Source: Gulosibacter sediminis (GTDB taxonomy: Bacteria; Actinomycetota; Actinomycetes; Actinomycetales; Microbacteriaceae). Taken from it: a stretch of 64,000 bases of DNA. The position numbers and the translations under genes were made by a program. Below the pieces are notes generated by a model. That model had not been told where the DNA came from. It was given only the letters and a program-made list of their open reading frames with translations, and searched no databases. This document shows positions 6,846 to 28,991 of the stretch, piece by piece (positions within the stretch are counted from its first letter, which is position 1; every line of letters starts with the position of its first letter). Location: the NCBI RefSeq assembly GCF_023370115.1, contig NZ_CP097160.1, positions 806,001-870,000 of the forward strand. Direction: 5' to 3'.

Positions 6846-6941
6846 GACAATAAGAATACGTCCGGCGTGCGCCTGCGCATTGCATTCGGGCGGAGCCGAT
6901 ATATTTGGATAACGTGCCTGGCGAACAGCGGAAGGGGGTGC

Positions 6942-7634
6942 ATGGTGTCGAACCTGGTGGACACAACGGAGATGTACCTCCGAACGATTCTTGACCTCGA
7001 AGAAGAGGACATCACTCCGCTGCGTGCCCGAATTTCCGAGCGACTCGGACACTCGGGGCCGACGGTGTCGCAGACGATTGCGCGCATGGAGCGCGATGGC
7101 CTCGTTGAGGTAGCCCCAGACCGACGACTCGTGCTGACCACGACGGGTCGGGAAAAAGCGATTCGGGTGCTGCGCAAGCACCGCATCGCCGAGTCGTTGC
7201 TGGCGAACGTGATCGGCCTCGACCTCGCCATCGTGCACGATGAGGCCTGCCGCTGGGAGCACGTCATGAGCGACGAGGCCGAAGAGCGCATCTACAAGCT
7301 GCTCGGGGAACCGACCGAATCGCCGTACGGCACACCGATCCCCTCGGAGGTCGACTGCGGGCTGCAGCCCGACGTGGAGTTTTTTCGCGGCGTCGCGTCG
7401 CTCGACCAGGCCGAGATCTCTTCGGGCGATGTCGCCGAGGTGCGCCGCCTGGGCGAGCCGCTGCAGGCCGATCTCGAGTCGATGCGGATGTTCCGGGAAC
7501 AGGGCGTGCTGCCTGGCAGTCGCGTCGTGGTCGAGTACCTCGGCGATGACATTCGGCTCTCGCCGGTGGGCGGGTCGACGAAGGTCGACGTGCCAATTCA
7601 GCTCGCCCGGCACGTGTACATCACGGCCGAGTAG
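6942..7634 (+). CDS. DtxR/IdeR-family metal-dependent repressor
   Basis: A 230-residue iron or manganese sensing repressor. The N-terminal winged helix (about 1-65) carries the recognition helix region GPTVSQTIARMERDGLV. The dimer and metal region contains the DtxR ligands: Met in DTTEMYLRTI, and Cys, Glu and His in DEACRWEHVM. The last 80 residues form the SH3-like domain. GAAGGGGG at 6931 precedes the ATG at 6942; the GTG at 6945 is an equally spaced alternative. It diverges from serC, a pairing common in this bacterial group. Confidence 0.92.
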   Translation: MVSNLVDTTEMYLRTILDLEEEDITPLRARISERLGHSGPTVSQTIARMERDGLVEVAPDRRLVLTTTGREKAIRVLRKHRIAESLLANVIGLDLAIVHDEACRWEHVMSDEAEERIYKLLGEPTESPYGTPIPSEVDCGLQPDVEFFRGVASLDQAEISSGDVAEVRRLGEPLQADLESMRMFREQGVLPGSRVVVEYLGDDIRLSPVGGSTKVDVPIQLARHVYITAE

Positions 7635-7675
7635 ACGCGCCGTTATAATTAAAAAGTGGGTCTGACCAGGGAAAC

Positions 7676-7734
7676 GTTATCTAAAGTATCCGAATTCGTT
7701 ACATTACCGTGACATTTTCGTGATCTTTCGTTAC
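7676..7734. promoter_or_regulatory. Phased GTnAC pentamer array, first NlpC/P60 gene
   Basis: GTTAC 7698, GTGAC 7709, GTGAT 7720 and GTTAC 7730 lie 11, 11 and 10 bases apart, all on one face of the helix. Weaker copies sit at 7676 (GTTAT) and 7686 (GTATC). The layout resembles direct-repeat boxes of MtrA-type response regulators, which control cell-wall hydrolase genes in actinobacteria. The assignment to MtrA is inference. Confidence 0.5.
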
Positions 7735-7749
7735 CGTTGGTATATCGAC

Positions 7750-7860
7750 GAACGCAGCCGCGTTCACGATGTACCGGGGCACCGCGAACCCGCCCCCTCG
7801 GTACTTCTCACCTAGATCTCGGTGGGCGGGGGAGCATCCGCGGTGCGGAGGGTCGAAACC
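7750..7860 (+). promoter_or_regulatory. Structured 5' leader of first NlpC/P60 gene
   Basis: A small hairpin GAACGC(7750-7755)-AGCC-GCGTTC(7760-7765) precedes a larger fold: GCACCGC(7779-7785) pairs with GCGGTGC(7840-7846), and CCCGCCC pairs with GGGCGGG inside it. TACCGGGG(7772-7779) could instead pair with CCTCGGTA(7796-7803), giving a rival hairpin or a pseudoknot. The ribosome site GGAGGG(7847-7852) directly follows the outer stem. The same element recurs at 8993-9100. Confidence 0.6.
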
Positions 7861-8895
7861 TTGCAGAACACCACCCCCACTGGCGCACTTACTCGTCGGG
7901 AAGCCCGCGAGATCGAGCGCCGCACCGGCGTCCGGCCCCTCGCGTCGACGACTGCCTCCCCGTGCCCCACCACCTCGAACGTCTGGGACACCGGTCGCAT
8001 CGACCGCAACGAAATGGCCGCGCTGCTCTCGGTGATTCCTACCGAGCTCGCTGCCGAAGCTGAGGCCGCCGCCGCGACGAGCGGCGAAGGCCGTGGCCTC
8101 ACGGTTCGCGCCGAGCGCCCCGCCGCGCTCGTGGCCCGGGGCCGTCGCCGCACCGCCGGCGGATTCGCCGCCGCCGCATCCATCACCGCGCTTGCCGCGG
8201 TCGGCCTCACCTCGGTCGTTGGCCAGGGTGCCGTTGTGGCCGACAGCTCGAACCACGAGGCTGACCTGCTCGCCCGCGTCGGCGCAAACGAGGCGCTCAA
8301 GCAGTCCGACGGCATCGTGAAGTCGGACGAAGCGAGCGACGCTGAGAAGGATGCAACCGCTGAGACCAGCAAGCCGGCCGCCGAGTCGAGCGAGCTGACC
8401 GAGATCGAGTCGTTCGACGCCGCCTCGGTGTCGTCCGCTGCTGCGGCCACCGAGGTTGAGGAGCCCGAGGTCGAGGTCACCGAGGTGAGCGCCGAAGGGT
8501 CCACCGAGACCGCGACCGACGACACCACGGCCGCCGCCGACTCGAGCGCCACCGCATCTGCGAGCACCTCGGGCAGCTCGATCATGTCGATCGCCGAGCA
8601 GTACCTGGGCACTCCCTATGTCTGGGGTGGCACTACGCCGTCGGGCTTCGACTGTGCCGGCTACGTCGCGTGGGTGCTCAACGAGGCTGGCTACAGCGCC
8701 ACGACCTCGATCGCGCAGCTCGCGTCGATGGGCACTGTGACGACCGACCCGCAGCCGGGCGACCTCGTGATCTACGACGGTCACATCGGCTTCTATGCCG
8801 GCCCGAACTCGATGCTGCACGCTCCGTACGCAGGCGATGTCGTCCGCTACGGCACCATTGACTGGGGCTCGCACTACTTCGTGCACCTCGGTTAA
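7861..8895 (+). CDS. NlpC/P60 cell-wall endopeptidase, membrane-anchored or exported
   Basis: A 344-residue protein. The N-terminal cytoplasmic part has LTRREAREIERRTGVRP and DTGRIDRNEMAALLSV, shared with its neighbour. One hydrophobic segment (GGFAAAASITALAAVGLTSV) acts as signal or anchor. A long Ala/Thr/Ser/Glu linker leads to a C-terminal NlpC/P60 domain with Cys265 (GFDCAGYVAW), His308 (DGHIGFY) and His320, the expected catalytic set for cleaving peptidoglycan stem peptides. The TTG at 7861 is chosen because GGAGGG lies 8 bases upstream and the paralogue at 9101 starts in the same way. Regulation is likely through the phased repeats and the folded leader. Confidence 0.85.
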   Translation: MQNTTPTGALTRREAREIERRTGVRPLASTTASPCPTTSNVWDTGRIDRNEMAALLSVIPTELAAEAEAAAATSGEGRGLTVRAERPAALVARGRRRTAGGFAAAASITALAAVGLTSVVGQGAVVADSSNHEADLLARVGANEALKQSDGIVKSDEASDAEKDATAETSKPAAESSELTEIESFDAASVSSAAAATEVEEPEVEVTEVSAEGSTETATDDTTAAADSSATASASTSGSSIMSIAEQYLGTPYVWGGTTPSGFDCAGYVAWVLNEAGYSATTSIAQLASMGTVTTDPQPGDLVIYDGHIGFYAGPNSMLHAPYAGDVVRYGTIDWGSHYFVHLG

Positions 8896-8905
8896 ATCGG
8901 ACTCC

Positions 8906-8976
8906 GTGACAAATCTCGTTATCTTTTTGTGAGATTTCCGTCACATGGGCGTGACATTCCCGTGATCTTTCGTTAC
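8906..8976. promoter_or_regulatory. Phased GTnAC pentamer array, second NlpC/P60 gene
   Basis: Seven pentamers: GTGAC 8906, GTTAT 8918, GTGAG 8929, GTCAC 8940, GTGAC 8951, GTGAT 8962 and GTTAC 8972. Steps are 12, 11, 11, 11, 11 and 10 bases. This is a longer version of the array before the first NlpC/P60 gene, and the proximal four copies align with that array. It suggests cooperative binding of a response regulator such as MtrA (inference). Confidence 0.55.
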
Positions 8977-8992
8977 GCTCATTTTTGTCGAC

Positions 8993-9100
8993 GAACACGA
9001 CCGTGTTCAGGTCATACCGAGGCACCGCAAACCCGCCCCCTCGGTACACTCACCAAAGTCTCGGTGGGCGGGGAAATATCCGCGGTGCGGAGGGTCGAAA
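8993..9100 (+). promoter_or_regulatory. Structured 5' leader of second NlpC/P60 gene
   Basis: Same architecture as the leader at 7750-7860. The small hairpin is GAACAC(8993-8998)-GACC-GTGTTC(9003-9008): compared with the first copy, a G-C pair became A-U on both arms. The outer stem is GCACCGC(9022-9028) with GCGGTGC(9082-9088). The competing pair is TACCGAGG(9015-9022) with CCTCGGTA(9039-9046), perfect here. GGAGGG at 9089-9094 is the ribosome site before TTG 9101. Confidence 0.6.
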
Positions 9101-10165
9101 TTGGACAACACCACTCAGAATGGCGCAACGCTCACCCGCCGTCAGGCACGTGAGATCGAGCGTCGTACCGGCGTCCGTCCCGTAGCAAACGCCGAGCCCG
9201 GCTCGTCGTTCCACCGCGAGGACACCGGTCGCATCGAGCGCAACGAGATGACCGCGCTCATCTCGGTGCTCCCGACCGAACTCATTACGCAGCTCAGCGA
9301 GCCGGCCGCCGAGGCCGAGGCACCCCGCGGCCTCACGGTCCGCGCCGCCCGCCCGGCCGCGCTCATCGCGCAGCGTCGTCGTCGTACCGCGGGTGGCTTC
9401 GCCGCCGCGGCCTCGGTGACCGCACTCGCCGCCGTCGGCCTCACCACTGTCGCCGGTCAGGGCGCCGTTGTTGCCGACACGCAGCACCAGGCCGACCTGC
9501 TCTCGGCCGTCAACTCGCAGGTGACCGGCGCGACCGCCGACGCCGCGAGCCAGGCCGCCGAAGACGAGAAGGCCGAAGAGGCCGCCGCGCAGGAGCAGGC
9601 CGCTCCCGCCGCCGAGTCGACCGAGGCAACCGAGATCGAGTCGTTCGACACCGCAACCGTCGCCTCGGCGGCCGTCGCCGTGCCGACCGAAGAGCCCGAA
9701 GAGACCACGACTGCTGCCGACACGAGCAGCTCGTCGTCGACCGAGGCTTCGTCGTCCGACAGCACCGGCAGCAGCAGCTCGGCCTCGACCCCGGCTCCGG
9801 CCCCGGCGACCGGCAACGTGCAGCAGGTCATGCTCAGCTACCTCCAGTCGATGCTCGGCTCGTACGGCATGGACTGCACCGACTACGTGCAGAACGCGCT
9901 TGCCGCGGCTGGCCTCACGACCGCTCGCCTCGACGGCGGCTACGACTACGGTGTGGGCGACTTCACGCAGTTCGGCACCCAGATCGACCCGAGCCAGGCG
10001 CAGGCCGGCGACATCATGATCAAGTACGGCTACCACGTCTCGGTGTACGCCGGTGGTGGCCAGGCGTACCACGGTGGCTGGAACGGTGCGGCGGACGACA
10101 ACGTCCTCACCTCGTACCAGGCCGACCCGTACTTCTACGACGTCATCATTCGCGTCAACGGCTAG
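9101..10165 (+). CDS. NlpC/P60-like cell-wall hydrolase, paralogue
   Basis: A 354-residue protein. It is a clear paralogue of the preceding gene over the N-terminal REIERRTGVRP block, the DTGRIERNEMTALISV block and the membrane segment near residue 100. The Ala/Glu/Ser/Thr linker is different and the catalytic domain has diverged: Cys259 in GMDCTDYVQNAL, His312 in GYHVSVYAGG, and His324 in YHGGW. It is probably an NlpC/P60 or CHAP-like amidase/peptidase acting outside the membrane. The start is the TTG at 9101, matching the paralogue. A strong terminator follows. Confidence 0.8.
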   Translation: MDNTTQNGATLTRRQAREIERRTGVRPVANAEPGSSFHREDTGRIERNEMTALISVLPTELITQLSEPAAEAEAPRGLTVRAARPAALIAQRRRRTAGGFAAAASVTALAAVGLTTVAGQGAVVADTQHQADLLSAVNSQVTGATADAASQAAEDEKAEEAAAQEQAAPAAESTEATEIESFDTATVASAAVAVPTEEPEETTTAADTSSSSSTEASSSDSTGSSSSASTPAPAPATGNVQQVMLSYLQSMLGSYGMDCTDYVQNALAAAGLTTARLDGGYDYGVGDFTQFGTQIDPSQAQAGDIMIKYGYHVSVYAGGGQAYHGGWNGAADDNVLTSYQADPYFYDVIIRVNG

Positions 10166-10372: not shown

Positions 10373-10540
10373 ATGACCTTGCAACGTCGTCAGGTCAGGC
10401 CGCAGGCGTGCGCCTGCTCCGGTTTCGAGCGCCATTTCCACCATGGAATAGTCGCGCCTGCGTCCAGTGATGGCACTGCCCTGTGGCAGTGCCATTTTTT
10501 GTCTGCATTCCAGGAGCAAACATGCGCACACTCGTTTTGA
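10373..10540 (+). CDS. Putative leader peptide before HNH gene
   Basis: A 55-residue reading frame with a strong ribosome site (GAAAGGAGCAGTC before the ATG at 10373). It encodes MTLQRRQVRPQACACSGFER at its start and then runs through a terminator hairpin and past the start of the HNH gene. Two Cys codons lie exactly in a hairpin (GCAGGC 10402-10407 with GCCTGC 10412-10417). Neither the sequence nor the composition suggests a stand-alone protein. A regulatory upstream ORF is more likely, but this is inference. The rest of the 10166-10521 gap holds the terminator at 10181 and no other gene that I can see. Confidence 0.35.
   Translation: MTLQRRQVRPQACACSGFERHFHHGIVAPASSDGTALWQCHFLSAFQEQTCAHSF
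10471..10500 (+). terminator. Terminator or attenuator directly upstream of HNH gene
   Basis: A perfect 10-bp stem, TGGCACTGCC-CTGT-GGCAGTGCCA (10471-10494), followed by six T residues. The HNH start codon is only 22 bases past the T run, too close for a separate promoter. Read-through therefore probably controls the HNH gene. Confidence 0.8.
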
Positions 10541-27816: not shown

Positions 27817-28110
27817 ATGGCTATCGTGCCGAAGATCTATTCTGATGAGTTCAAACGGGACGCTGTAGCGATGGTGGCTGCGGGCTCGTCGCAGCGGCAG
27901 GTGTGCAGGGATCTGGGGATCTCGAAGACCGCGTTGCAGACCTGGATCCGAGATGACCGGTTCCGTTCGCATGGGATGACCCCTACGACGGATCTTGACG
28001 AGCGTCGCGAGATGACCGCGGCGTTGCGGCGGATCCGGGAGATGGAGAACGAGGTACTCCGGCGGGCTGCGGCGTATCTGTCGCAGGCGCATCTGCTGCC
28101 CCCAAAATGA
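27817..28110 (+). CDS. IS3-family transposase OrfA (left copy)
   Basis: A 97-residue HTH protein (SSQRQVCRDLGISKTALQTWI is the HTH) with a C-terminal helical zipper (IREMENEVLRRAAAYLSQ). GGAAGG precedes the ATG. The last codons are CCC CCA AAA TGA: the heptamer C CCA AAA (28101-28107) is a correctly phased -1 slippery site, and orfB begins in the -1 frame at 28107. An OrfAB fusion is thus expected. Confidence 0.92.
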   Translation: MAIVPKIYSDEFKRDAVAMVAAGSSQRQVCRDLGISKTALQTWIRDDRFRSHGMTPTTDLDERREMTAALRRIREMENEVLRRAAAYLSQAHLLPPK

Positions 28111-28991
28111 TCTACCCGCTCGTCCGTGAGATGGCCGCGGCCGACGCCCCTGTACGGGTGCCGGTCGCGGTGGCGTGTCGGGTACTCGGGTTCTCTGAGC
28201 AGGCGTATTACAAGTGGCTGCGCCGGCCTGTGTCGGCGCGTGAAGTCGAGGAAACGCACCTGATCGAGGTGCTCCGGGAACTGCACGAGGACAACCCTGA
28301 GGGCGGGTATCGGGTGCTGTCGGACGATCTTGCCGAGCGTGGTTACCAGCTCAGCGAGCGGCGTGTGTGGCGGTTATGCCGTGTCGCGGGGATTCGTTCG
28401 ACGATCACGGCCCGCAAACGCCGGTATCGGACAGCGGGGCCGCCGGTGCATGACGATCTCGTGAATCGCGAGTTCACCGCGCATGGTCCGAACCAGCTGT
28501 GGTTGACCGACATTACCGAGCACCGGACCGCCCAGGGGAAGTTGTACTGCTGCGCAGTTAAAGACGTCTACTCGAACCGTATCGTCGGGTACTCGATCGA
28601 TTCGCGGATGAAGGCCCGCATCGCGGTGAACGCGTTGGAGATGGCGATCGCGCATCGCGGTATCCCTGAGGGTGTGATCGTGCATAGCGACCGCGGTTCG
28701 CAGTTCCGGTCCCGGAAGTTCGTCAAGGCCCTGCACACGTACAACCTGATCGGCTCGATGGGGCGTGTGGGTGCGTGTGGCGACAACGCCGCGATGGAAT
28801 CGTTCTTCAGCTTGTTACAGAAGAACGTCCTGGATCGGCACTTGTGGGCCACGCGTGCTGAGTTGCGTCTGGCGATTGTGCAGTGGATCGAGGGGGTCTA
28901 CCACCGCAAGCGGCGGCAACGACGACTTGGGAAACTGACCCCGGTGGAGTTCGAGACCATAATGATGGAAGCCGTCGCACTGGCGGCATAA
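28107..28991 (+). CDS. IS3-family transposase OrfB (left copy)
   Basis: A 294-residue DDE transposase of normal length. Catalytic residues: Asp in WLTDITEH, Asp in HSDRGSQFRS, Glu in DNAAMESFFSLLQK. An N-terminal HTH_21-like region (CRVLGFSEQAYYKW) precedes the rve core, and the C-terminal RRQRRLGKLTPVEFE is complete. ATGA overlap with orfA. This copy looks functional and could mobilise the whole composite. Confidence 0.93.
   Translation: MIYPLVREMAAADAPVRVPVAVACRVLGFSEQAYYKWLRRPVSAREVEETHLIEVLRELHEDNPEGGYRVLSDDLAERGYQLSERRVWRLCRVAGIRSTITARKRRYRTAGPPVHDDLVNREFTAHGPNQLWLTDITEHRTAQGKLYCCAVKDVYSNRIVGYSIDSRMKARIAVNALEMAIAHRGIPEGVIVHSDRGSQFRSRKFVKALHTYNLIGSMGRVGACGDNAAMESFFSLLQKNVLDRHLWATRAELRLAIVQWIEGVYHRKRRQRRLGKLTPVEFETIMMEAVALAA

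What the first reader, a model, noticed from the sequence alone, without database searches (positions are those of the whole stretch)
7750..9100. Duplicated folded 5' leader before two paralogous NlpC/P60 genes, with compensatory change
Both genes carry the same 90-110 base leader: a small hairpin, an outer stem GCACCGC/GCGGTGC, an inner GC stem, and a competing TACCG(A/G)GG/CCTCGGTA pairing, ending in the ribosome site and a TTG start. In the small hairpin GAACGC/GCGTTC has become GAACAC/GTGTTC, a change on both arms that keeps pairing, and the rival helix has G-U in one copy and A-U in the other. This is evidence of a selected RNA fold. It does not show the core of the ydaO/c-di-AMP riboswitch often found before such genes, as far as I can recall it, so it may be a different switch or thermosensor.
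Basis: partly seen in the sequence, partly recalled or inferred. Interest (0 to 1): 0.78.

Follow-up and report, generated by a model that had tools for sequence, protein, structure and literature searches.

The report
Pseudoknotted RNA leader before cell-wall genes
The start of the messages for two neighbouring cell-wall-cutting enzymes folds into a knotted RNA shape that evolution has kept in related bacteria, probably to control how much enzyme is made, at the very place where other bacteria of the same order carry a different RNA switch that this family seems to lack.

Summary
Both NlpC/P60 genes carry the same leader. In this genus (Gulosibacter by record titles) it precedes 17 of 19 such genes in 11 genomes, and one gene in a second genus of the family. 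Every helix covaries. The 'rival' helix shares no strand with the other stems and crosses two of them, so the fold is a pseudoknot; on an unsupervised alignment it is the only one of 4196 nine-pair placements to reach both its pairing and its two-sided change. The Rfam searches gave no match. A c-di-AMP switch is implausible: that riboswitch and the diadenylate cyclase domain are each absent from 60 of 60 Microbacteriaceae searched. Yet in other families of the order the c-di-AMP riboswitch sits in the same place, between a DtxR-type gene and NlpC/P60 (6 of 16 loci), sometimes before each of two tandem genes, as the new leader does here. Best reading: a cis-acting RNA, between promoter and a UUG start, that limits translation or decay of hydrolase messages and has taken over the switch's site. 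Measured unpaired segments are mostly poorly conserved, so a small-molecule aptamer is less likely. Function and trigger are inferred, not shown.

The parts
7709..7737 (+). presumed promoter of copy A: GTGACA-N17-TACCGT
   Evidence: GTGACA (GTGACT in one)-N17-TANNNT upstream of 17 of 17 leaders, P0 starting 11-14 nt after it; the assignment as -35/-10 is inference, the strict consensus scan found none
7750..7765 (+). copy A hairpin P0 (GAACGC-AGCC-GCGTTC), predicted near the 5' end of the transcript
   Evidence: 101 of 102 cells paired, loop 4 or 5 nt; 3 two-sided changes on the coding tree; a hairpin of other sequence at this place in a second genus
7771..7779 (+). copy A strand a of the crossing helix (GTACCGGGG)
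   Evidence: a/a' 138 of 152 cells paired; 21 two-sided changes on the coding tree
7780..7785 (+). copy A strand b of the outer stem (CACCGC)
   Evidence: b/b' 99 of 102 cells paired; 11 two-sided changes
7789..7794 (+). copy A strand c of the inner stem (CCCGCC)
   Evidence: c/c' 102 of 102 cells paired; 4 two-sided changes
7796..7804 (+). copy A strand a' (CCTCGGTAC), pairs with 7771-7779 and so crosses stems b and c
7809..7824 (+). copy A hairpin d (CACC-N8-GGTG)
   Evidence: 66 of 71 cells paired, 7 two-sided changes
7825..7830 (+). copy A strand c' (GGCGGG)
7831..7839 (+). copy A small hairpin e (GGA-GCA-TCC); longer in other species, with loops such as GCAA, GAGA and TTCG
   Evidence: 59 of 63 cells paired, 17 two-sided changes
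7840..7845 (+). copy A strand b' (GCGGTG), one nucleotide before the ribosome site
7847..7852 (+). copy A ribosome-binding site GGAGGG
   Evidence: GAGGGTCG in 14 of 17 leaders
7861..8895 (+). NlpC/P60 gene 1, UUG start
   Evidence: Pfam NLPC_P60 E 1.3e-17, scanned from 7852; starts 15 UUG and 2 GUG of 17
8951..8979 (+). presumed promoter of copy B: GTGACA-N17-TACGCT
   Evidence: inference as above
8993..9008 (+). copy B hairpin P0 (GAACAC-GACC-GTGTTC)
9014..9022 (+). copy B strand a (ATACCGAGG)
9023..9028 (+). copy B strand b (CACCGC)
9032..9037 (+). copy B strand c (CCCGCC)
9039..9047 (+). copy B strand a' (CCTCGGTAC)
9051..9066 (+). copy B hairpin d (CACC-N8-GGTG)
9067..9072 (+). copy B strand c' (GGCGGG)
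9073..9081 (+). copy B weak hairpin e (GAA-ATA-TCC, one mismatch)
9082..9087 (+). copy B strand b' (GCGGTG)
9089..9094 (+). copy B ribosome-binding site GGAGGG
9101..10165 (+). NlpC/P60 gene 2, UUG start
   Evidence: Pfam NLPC_P60 E 3.5e-05

Best explanation
The leader is a cis-acting structured RNA, a pseudoknot placed between the promoter and the ribosome site of tandem NlpC/P60 peptidoglycan-hydrolase genes. The message begins near a stable hairpin (P0). Strand a pairs with a' (9 pairs) and c with c' (6 pairs) with only 0-1 nt between c and a', the layout of an H-type pseudoknot; b, lying between a and c, pairs with b' just before the ribosome site and encloses the c-d arm and hairpin e. 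The folded body ends one nucleotide before GGAGGG and a UUG start, so its formation should limit or gate 30S loading and shield the message's 5' end from decay, keeping a potentially harmful cell-wall cutter low or tunable. It stands at the place that the c-di-AMP riboswitch holds in sister families. Shown by computation: the helices, their crossing, the location, the conservation in one genus and in one gene of a second. Inferred: that a/a' and the b and c stems form in one molecule, that translation or decay is what is controlled, that it replaced the switch, and that the fold responds to anything.
For: Covariation of all six helices on 17 leaders; 63 two-sided changes by parsimony on a tree from the coding region alone; the top 6 of 5671 column pairs all lie in the structure. 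a and b abut with 0 nt in 17 of 17, c and a' with 0 nt in 6 and 1 nt in 11. Promoter-P0-pseudoknot-ribosome site-start in 17 of 19 genus NlpC/P60 genes; starts 15 UUG, 2 GUG. Second-genus homologue G406: same promoter spacing, a/a' 8 of 9, c/c' 6 of 6, d 4 of 4, P0 7 of 7 with unrelated letters, UUG start. [quoted passage not shown] No terminator-like site in 7600-9120, so translation or stability rather than attenuation. Two genus paralogues lack the module, one apparently leaderless with ATG. C. glutamicum nlpC is MtrA-repressed and has a c-di-AMP riboswitch thought to act on translation (PMC9960051, passages).
Against: No expression, probing or transcription-start data. Energy models do not agree on one fold and give no consistent ribosome-site exposure (0.05-0.77 nested-forced, 0.16-0.85 with a/a' forced, 15 of 17 leaders). 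Pairing of the ribosome site with a' is not kept by two-sided change (read by eye). In the tree-aware test only 1 of 9 a/a' pairs passes E<0.05 within the structure set and none over all column pairs; 11 of the a/a' changes go to or from mismatch. In G406 b/b' forms 4 of 6 pairs and only the first of three tandem genes has the pseudoknot. Seven other homologues in the order carry no such fold by a descriptor scan or model R2.
Confidence: 0.65

Rival explanations
1. A true riboswitch: the pseudoknot is an aptamer for a small molecule or ion (cell-wall precursor, another nucleotide, a metal; a DtxR-type gene lies just upstream) that opens or closes the ribosome site, standing in for the missing c-di-AMP switch.
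For: Compact pseudoknot with extra hairpins abutting the ribosome site; it occupies the site of the c-di-AMP riboswitch in the syntenic locus of sister families, before each tandem gene as there.
Against: The unpaired segments measured are mostly variable in majority identity: P0 loop 0.35-0.94, J1 0.53-0.76, J2 0.50-0.80 where 13 or more rows have a letter, a'-d linker 0.41-0.64 in its first seven columns, d loop mostly 0.36-0.69, unlike the conserved pockets of known aptamers (established knowledge); the e loop and the joints next to it were not measured. Only one gene class is preceded. c-di-AMP itself is excluded as ligand by absence of the cyclase.
Confidence: 0.2
2. A constitutive element: 5' hairpin and pseudoknot only stabilise the message or set a fixed low translation rate, without sensing.
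For: P0 starts 11-14 nt after the presumed -10 (15 in G406), i.e. near the 5' end; structure kept while loops drift; non-AUG starts in 17 of 17 genus leaders.
Against: A fixed rate could be set by much simpler means; a six-helix pseudoknot under compensatory change is costly to keep for that alone (inference).
Confidence: 0.4
3. The a/a' helix and the b/c stems are two alternative states of one RNA (a switch), not one pseudoknot.
For: Covariation cannot tell simultaneous from alternative pairs; the a/a'-forced optimum equals the free optimum in 3 of 15 leaders and lies within 2.5 kcal/mol of it in 4 more.
Against: No strand is shared; the 0-nt and 0-1-nt junctions are kept in 17 of 17, which alternatives would not need.
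Confidence: 0.25
4. The leader is bound by a protein (ribosomal protein, RNA chaperone or a part of the hydrolase pathway) that represses translation.
For: H-type pseudoknots as protein-bound translational operators are known (rpsO; recalled).
Against: No conserved unpaired recognition motif in the segments measured; no candidate protein.
Confidence: 0.15
5. P0 is a DNA operator and the rest a by-product of duplicated promoter DNA.
For: P0 arms are nearly invariant within the genus, as an operator would be.
Against: Spacer is 4 nt in 11 and 5 nt in 6 leaders; the 6 other sites of the pattern in the own genome all overlap long open frames; in G406 the hairpin has unrelated letters; the other helices covary far downstream.
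Confidence: 0.04

Closest known systems
c-di-AMP riboswitch (ydaO/yuaA leader, RF00379)
   Same: Structured 5' leader before NlpC/P60 cell-wall hydrolase genes, in the same syntenic place in other families of the order; in C. glutamicum thought to act on translation (PMC9960051).
   Different: No covariance-model match in the window or genus loci searched nor in 11 genus genomes; the cyclase needed to make the ligand was not found in the genus.
H-type pseudoknot translational leaders (rpsO operator, SAM-II, preQ1 classes; recalled, compared by tool only through Rfam)
   Same: Crossing helices with a 0-1 nt junction next to the ribosome site.
   Different: Here a third helix b/b' is also crossed and two hairpins are inserted; the ribosome site is outside the conserved pairs; no Rfam match.
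NLPC-P60 RNA motif (recalled from the 2017 list of 224 candidate RNAs; paper not held)
   Same: Name implies a leader before NlpC/P60 genes.
   Different: Recalled as a Streptomyces motif; not verified. If it is in Rfam 15 it was scanned without a match.

Membership tests
c-di-AMP riboswitch RF00379 | match to the family's covariance model | tested here: not met
   no match in the window or in the genus loci scanned; 0 of 11 genus genomes with stricter filters
c-di-AMP riboswitch RF00379 | organism makes c-di-AMP (DAC domain PF02457) | tested here: not met
   0 of 11 genus and 0 of 60 Microbacteriaceae genomes; 28 of 39 other genomes of the order; rings in 11 of 14 control genomes
c-di-AMP riboswitch RF00379 | upstream of a cell-wall hydrolase gene | tested here: met
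   NLPC_P60 genes follow both copies
H-type pseudoknot RNA | two helices that cross, both supported by two-sided changes | tested here: met
   a/a' 8 of 9, b/b' 5 of 6 and c/c' 2 of 6 pairs with changes on both sides (hand-guided); placement control on the MAFFT alignment
H-type pseudoknot RNA | both helices present in the same molecule | not testable with these tools
   needs probing or a structure
riboswitch (ligand-sensing leader) | highly conserved unpaired binding pocket | tested here: not met
   five unpaired segments measured, mostly 0.35-0.80 majority identity over 17 leaders of one genus, one column 0.94; e loop and its joints not measured
riboswitch (ligand-sensing leader) | ligand binding changes expression | not testable with these tools
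   bench test needed
transcription attenuator | intrinsic terminator before the gene | tested here: not met
   0 terminator-like sites in 7600-9120
RNA thermosensor | weak conserved helix covering the ribosome site | tested here: not met
   no Rfam thermosensor match; GGAGGG lies outside the conserved pairs; energies inconclusive
cis-regulatory leader | located between promoter and start of one gene class across species | tested here: met
   17 of 19 genus NlpC/P60 genes and one of three tandem NlpC/P60 genes in G406

The most novel reading that the evidence does not exclude
A new riboswitch class that has replaced another at the same address: after the family lost c-di-AMP and its riboswitch, a Gulosibacter ancestor evolved an unrelated pseudoknot aptamer in the syntenic DtxR-NlpC/P60 locus and put the same tandem cell-wall hydrolase genes under another envelope or metabolite signal.
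Probability: 0.2. Interest if true: 0.9.

Novelty: new variant of a known kind. Interest (0 to 1): 0.7.

Why it matters
It is a well-supported structured leader RNA without an Rfam match, sitting where sister families carry the c-di-AMP riboswitch before the same tandem hydrolase genes. In the genomes searched the family lacks both that riboswitch and the enzyme that makes its ligand, so the locus offers a natural experiment on what follows when an RNA switch is lost and why these hydrolase genes keep RNA-level control. The fold is small, covaries strongly and is directly testable with reporters and probing.

Tried and rejected
c-di-AMP switch, including a divergent one: rejected. P0 as a dispersed DNA operator: the pattern GAACRCN{4,5}GYGTTC occurs 8 times in the own genome; the 6 sites outside the two leaders all overlap long open frames; sites in the other 10 genomes were not examined. 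Third leader in the own genome: the partial hit at C1:1423521 (E 0.023) lies in what reads by eye as excision-repair genes and was dropped.

Homologues outside the genus. Model R1, 299 family genomes: 7 genus genomes and one weak hit (G155, E 0.077). Model R2, 398 family genomes: 10 genus genomes and 4 weak hits (G423, G286, G406, G134; E 0.022-0.045). Class, 394 genomes at E up to 0.01: own genome and one weak hit (G550, E 0.005). I first took all weak hits as chance; on checking, G406 proved a real homologue. The other five overlap long open frames and are taken as chance; hits at these E-values are expected by chance in so many genomes. Only 10-12 candidates per genome were fully scored and the real homologue reached only 25.9 bits, so further homologues outside the genus may well be missed. 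G008 is not among the hits; I cannot tell whether it was in the sample, but R2 finds its leaders in L030. A protein search beyond the genus covered 99 genomes, which did not include the genus of G406.

Folding energies decided nothing; two rows (G10, G1) gave no usable nested energy and the two masked leaders of G007 were left out. A home-made descriptor of the pseudoknot finds 15 of 17 genus leaders (misses G8b and G10) and G406 (24.0; 20 shuffles 0), nothing in L060-L064 and L068, and in L067 a score (20.2) below its own best shuffle (21.6); shuffles of one genus leader reached 28.3. A distant NlpC-like match in G006 (27938-28468) was not counted; model R2 finds no leader there. Literature: searches listed no paper that I recognised as describing this leader (titles and abstract starts only); the 2017 candidate-RNA paper is not held.

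Full report
What is there. The window (G000, one contig of 2.75 Mb) holds a DtxR-type regulator (6924-7634; NCBIfam DtxR E 2.4e-79 but 266 bits against a cut-off of 290) followed by two tandem NlpC/P60 genes (Pfam E 1.3e-17 and 3.5e-05) and, further on, an HNH-nuclease-like gene (NCBIfam hits below cut-off).

Homologues in the genus. A DNA search finds the promoter-leader block in 11 of 11 genomes. A protein search gives 20 rows; two rows in G008 lie in one 143-codon frame, so 19 genes. Seventeen of these have promoter, small hairpin and pseudoknot. The two without it are the middle gene of three in G005, which has the same kind of promoter and an ATG close behind, so apparently leaderless, and the third gene of G008, which keeps the promoter and the small hairpin but not the pseudoknot. 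A further block in G001 (L031) has the promoter repeats, a broken hairpin and no pseudoknot, and a distant match in G006 has no leader by model R2; neither is counted.

A homologue in a second genus. Model R2 gave G406, of the same family but another genus, only E 0.04. Its locus reads DtxR (66% identity), leader, three tandem NlpC/P60 genes, HNH (68%). The leader has GTGACA-N17-TAGTGT, then P0 with unrelated letters (CTAGGCA-ATC-TGCCTAG, 7 of 7), a/a' 8 of 9, b/b' 4 of 6, c/c' 6 of 6, d 4 of 4 with loop GTAA, e 3 of 3, GGAGG and a TTG start. The second and third genes have other, simpler leaders without the pseudoknot (by eye; R2 finds only the first).

The fold. Order of strands: P0 hairpin, a, b, c, a', hairpin d, c', hairpin e, b', ribosome site, start. 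Cells paired on the hand alignment of 17: P0 101/102, a/a' 138/152, b/b' 99/102, c/c' 102/102, d 66/71, e 59/63. On the plain MAFFT alignment, with P0, a, b and c only, 90.1% of 454 cells pair (shuffled 82.5), 47 cells are changed on both sides (17.9), score 0.293 (0.157; 0 of 500 shuffles), and sliding the partner by 1-3 columns drops pairing to 40.5-47.6%. One measure there, further pair types, does not exceed the shuffles (25 against 25.2). On the hand-guided alignment of 14 leaders the score is 0.551 against 0.187 and 22 of 29 pairs change on both sides; this one leans towards the structure.

Is the crossing helix real? Of 4196 placements of a 9-pair helix on the MAFFT alignment, 6 reach its 22 two-sided cells, 1 reaches its pairing fraction (0.84), and only a/a' itself reaches both; the next best are registers of the same helix or of b/b'. 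For b/b', of 4438 six-pair placements only itself reaches both. A home-made test that keeps the tree and the substitutions per branch puts the six best of 5671 column pairs inside the structure, one of them in a/a'; 9 of 35 structure pairs have E<0.05 when only the structure pairs are tested (8 nested, 1 crossing); over all pairs 2 do, both nested, and 0 of 5636 pairs outside the structure. On a tree from the coding region only, parsimony counts two-sided changes: P0 3, a/a' 21, b/b' 11, c/c' 4, d 7, e 17; there are also 22 changes to or from mismatch, 11 of them in a/a'. The junctions a-b (0 nt in 17) and c-a' (0 nt in 6, 1 nt in 11) are what stacked H-type pseudoknots show (the comparison is from general knowledge).

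Known families. Rfam at curated thresholds gives two tRNAs in the window and nothing else; 7500-9400 at E up to 10 gives two matches on the other strand far below their gathering scores. Eight further genus loci have no match, nor have four genus loci at E up to 5. In the nine loci from outside the genus, five have a tRNA and two have RF00379.

The c-di-AMP question. RF00379 is absent from 60 of 60 Microbacteriaceae genomes (11 of the genus, 49 others) and present in 26 of 39 other genomes of the order; the search used stricter filters and rings in 2 of 14 controls, Bacillus subtilis and Corynebacterium glutamicum. The diadenylate cyclase domain PF02457 shows the same split, 0 of 60 and 28 of 39; 25 of the 26 switch-bearing genomes have it, the exception, G331, being 88% complete. 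G406 was not among these 99 genomes.

Same address. Of the 16 RF00379 loci fetched (the best match of each of 16 of the 26 genomes), 7 have a DtxR homologue just upstream, 11 an NlpC/P60 homologue just downstream and 6 both. In G310, G328 and G321 the order is DtxR, switch, NlpC/P60, switch, NlpC/P60, the arrangement of the window with another RNA; in G307 and G303 the HNH gene follows the NlpC/P60 genes as here. Three Microbacteriaceae loci (L060, L061, L062) have DtxR before NlpC/P60 without either RNA as far as I could find. I infer that the new leader took over the site of the switch; the alternative, that the site was empty for long before, is not excluded.

Where it acts. GTGACA (GTGACT in one)-N17-TANNNT stands before 17 of 17 leaders and P0 begins 11-14 nt after it, which would place P0 near the 5' end of the message; the strict promoter scan finds nothing, so this is my reading. 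No terminator-like site is found. b' ends one nucleotide before GGAGGG in both window copies; starts are UUG in 15 and GUG in 2 of 17. This points to translation or message stability. GTNAC repeats at about 11 bp over the promoter resemble the direct-repeat site of MtrA ((A/G)TAACAAT twice with a 3-bp linker; PMC3353115, passages); MtrA represses nlpC in C. glutamicum and a c-di-AMP riboswitch there seems to act on its translation (PMC9960051, passages). The Gulosibacter arrangement looks like the same two-layer logic with a different RNA.

What it probably is not. The unpaired segments measured are mostly poorly conserved even within one genus, which speaks against a small-molecule pocket; the GC-rich stems and the ribosome site outside the conserved pairs speak against a thermosensor; P0 spacing, distribution and its other letters in G406 speak against an operator. 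Energy models were inconclusive.

Distribution. Within 299 and 398 sampled family genomes and 394 class genomes the models find the genus, G406 and five weak hits that I take as chance (checks in 33, 34, 63, 67, 82). Sensitivity outside the genus is low, so the element may be wider spread in the family.

Verdict. A real, selected, pseudoknotted leader RNA without an Rfam match, in two genera, at the site that the c-di-AMP riboswitch holds in sister families; most likely a cis-acting limiter of translation or decay of cell-wall hydrolase messages. Whether it senses anything is open.

Noticed in passing
window 7660-7737 and 8900-8979: GTNAC/GTGAT repeats at about 11-bp spacing across the promoters of both genes and of the genus homologues, resembling MtrA sites reported for C. 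glutamicum nlpC; similar blocks occur before NlpC/P60 genes of other Microbacteriaceae (L063, L067).
   Followed up: partly
60 Microbacteriaceae genomes: No diadenylate cyclase domain and no c-di-AMP riboswitch in any of 60 family genomes, whereas 28 and 26 of 39 other genomes of the order have them; suggests loss of c-di-AMP signalling in the family.
   Followed up: partly
L112-L116, L069-L072, L080, L082: The DtxR-NlpC/P60 locus (with HNH downstream in some) is conserved in other families of the order, with the c-di-AMP riboswitch in the gap where this leader stands.
   Followed up: partly
L029 (G005), L030 (G008), L121 (G406): Tandem NlpC/P60 paralogues without the pseudoknot: one apparently leaderless with ATG, one with P0 only, and in G406 two with other small hairpins, one of them (CGGTGTT-CGAA-AACACCG) ending at the ribosome site.
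   Followed up: partly
L063 and L067, upstream of the NlpC/P60 homologue: A different small hairpin (such as GGTTC-GCAAG-GAACC) sits at the place of P0 behind the same kind of promoter in other genera, so a 5'-proximal hairpin may be older than the pseudoknot.
   Followed up: no
window 10373-10540: Small open frame with a ribosome site (MTLQRRQVRPQACACSGF...) running into a terminator-like hairpin (10469-10496) just before the HNH-nuclease-like gene; could be a leader peptide with an attenuator.
   Followed up: no
L010 (G007), both leaders: A stretch at hairpin e reads N in the held sequence of both copies; these rows were partly left out of the counts there and wholly of model R2.
   Followed up: no
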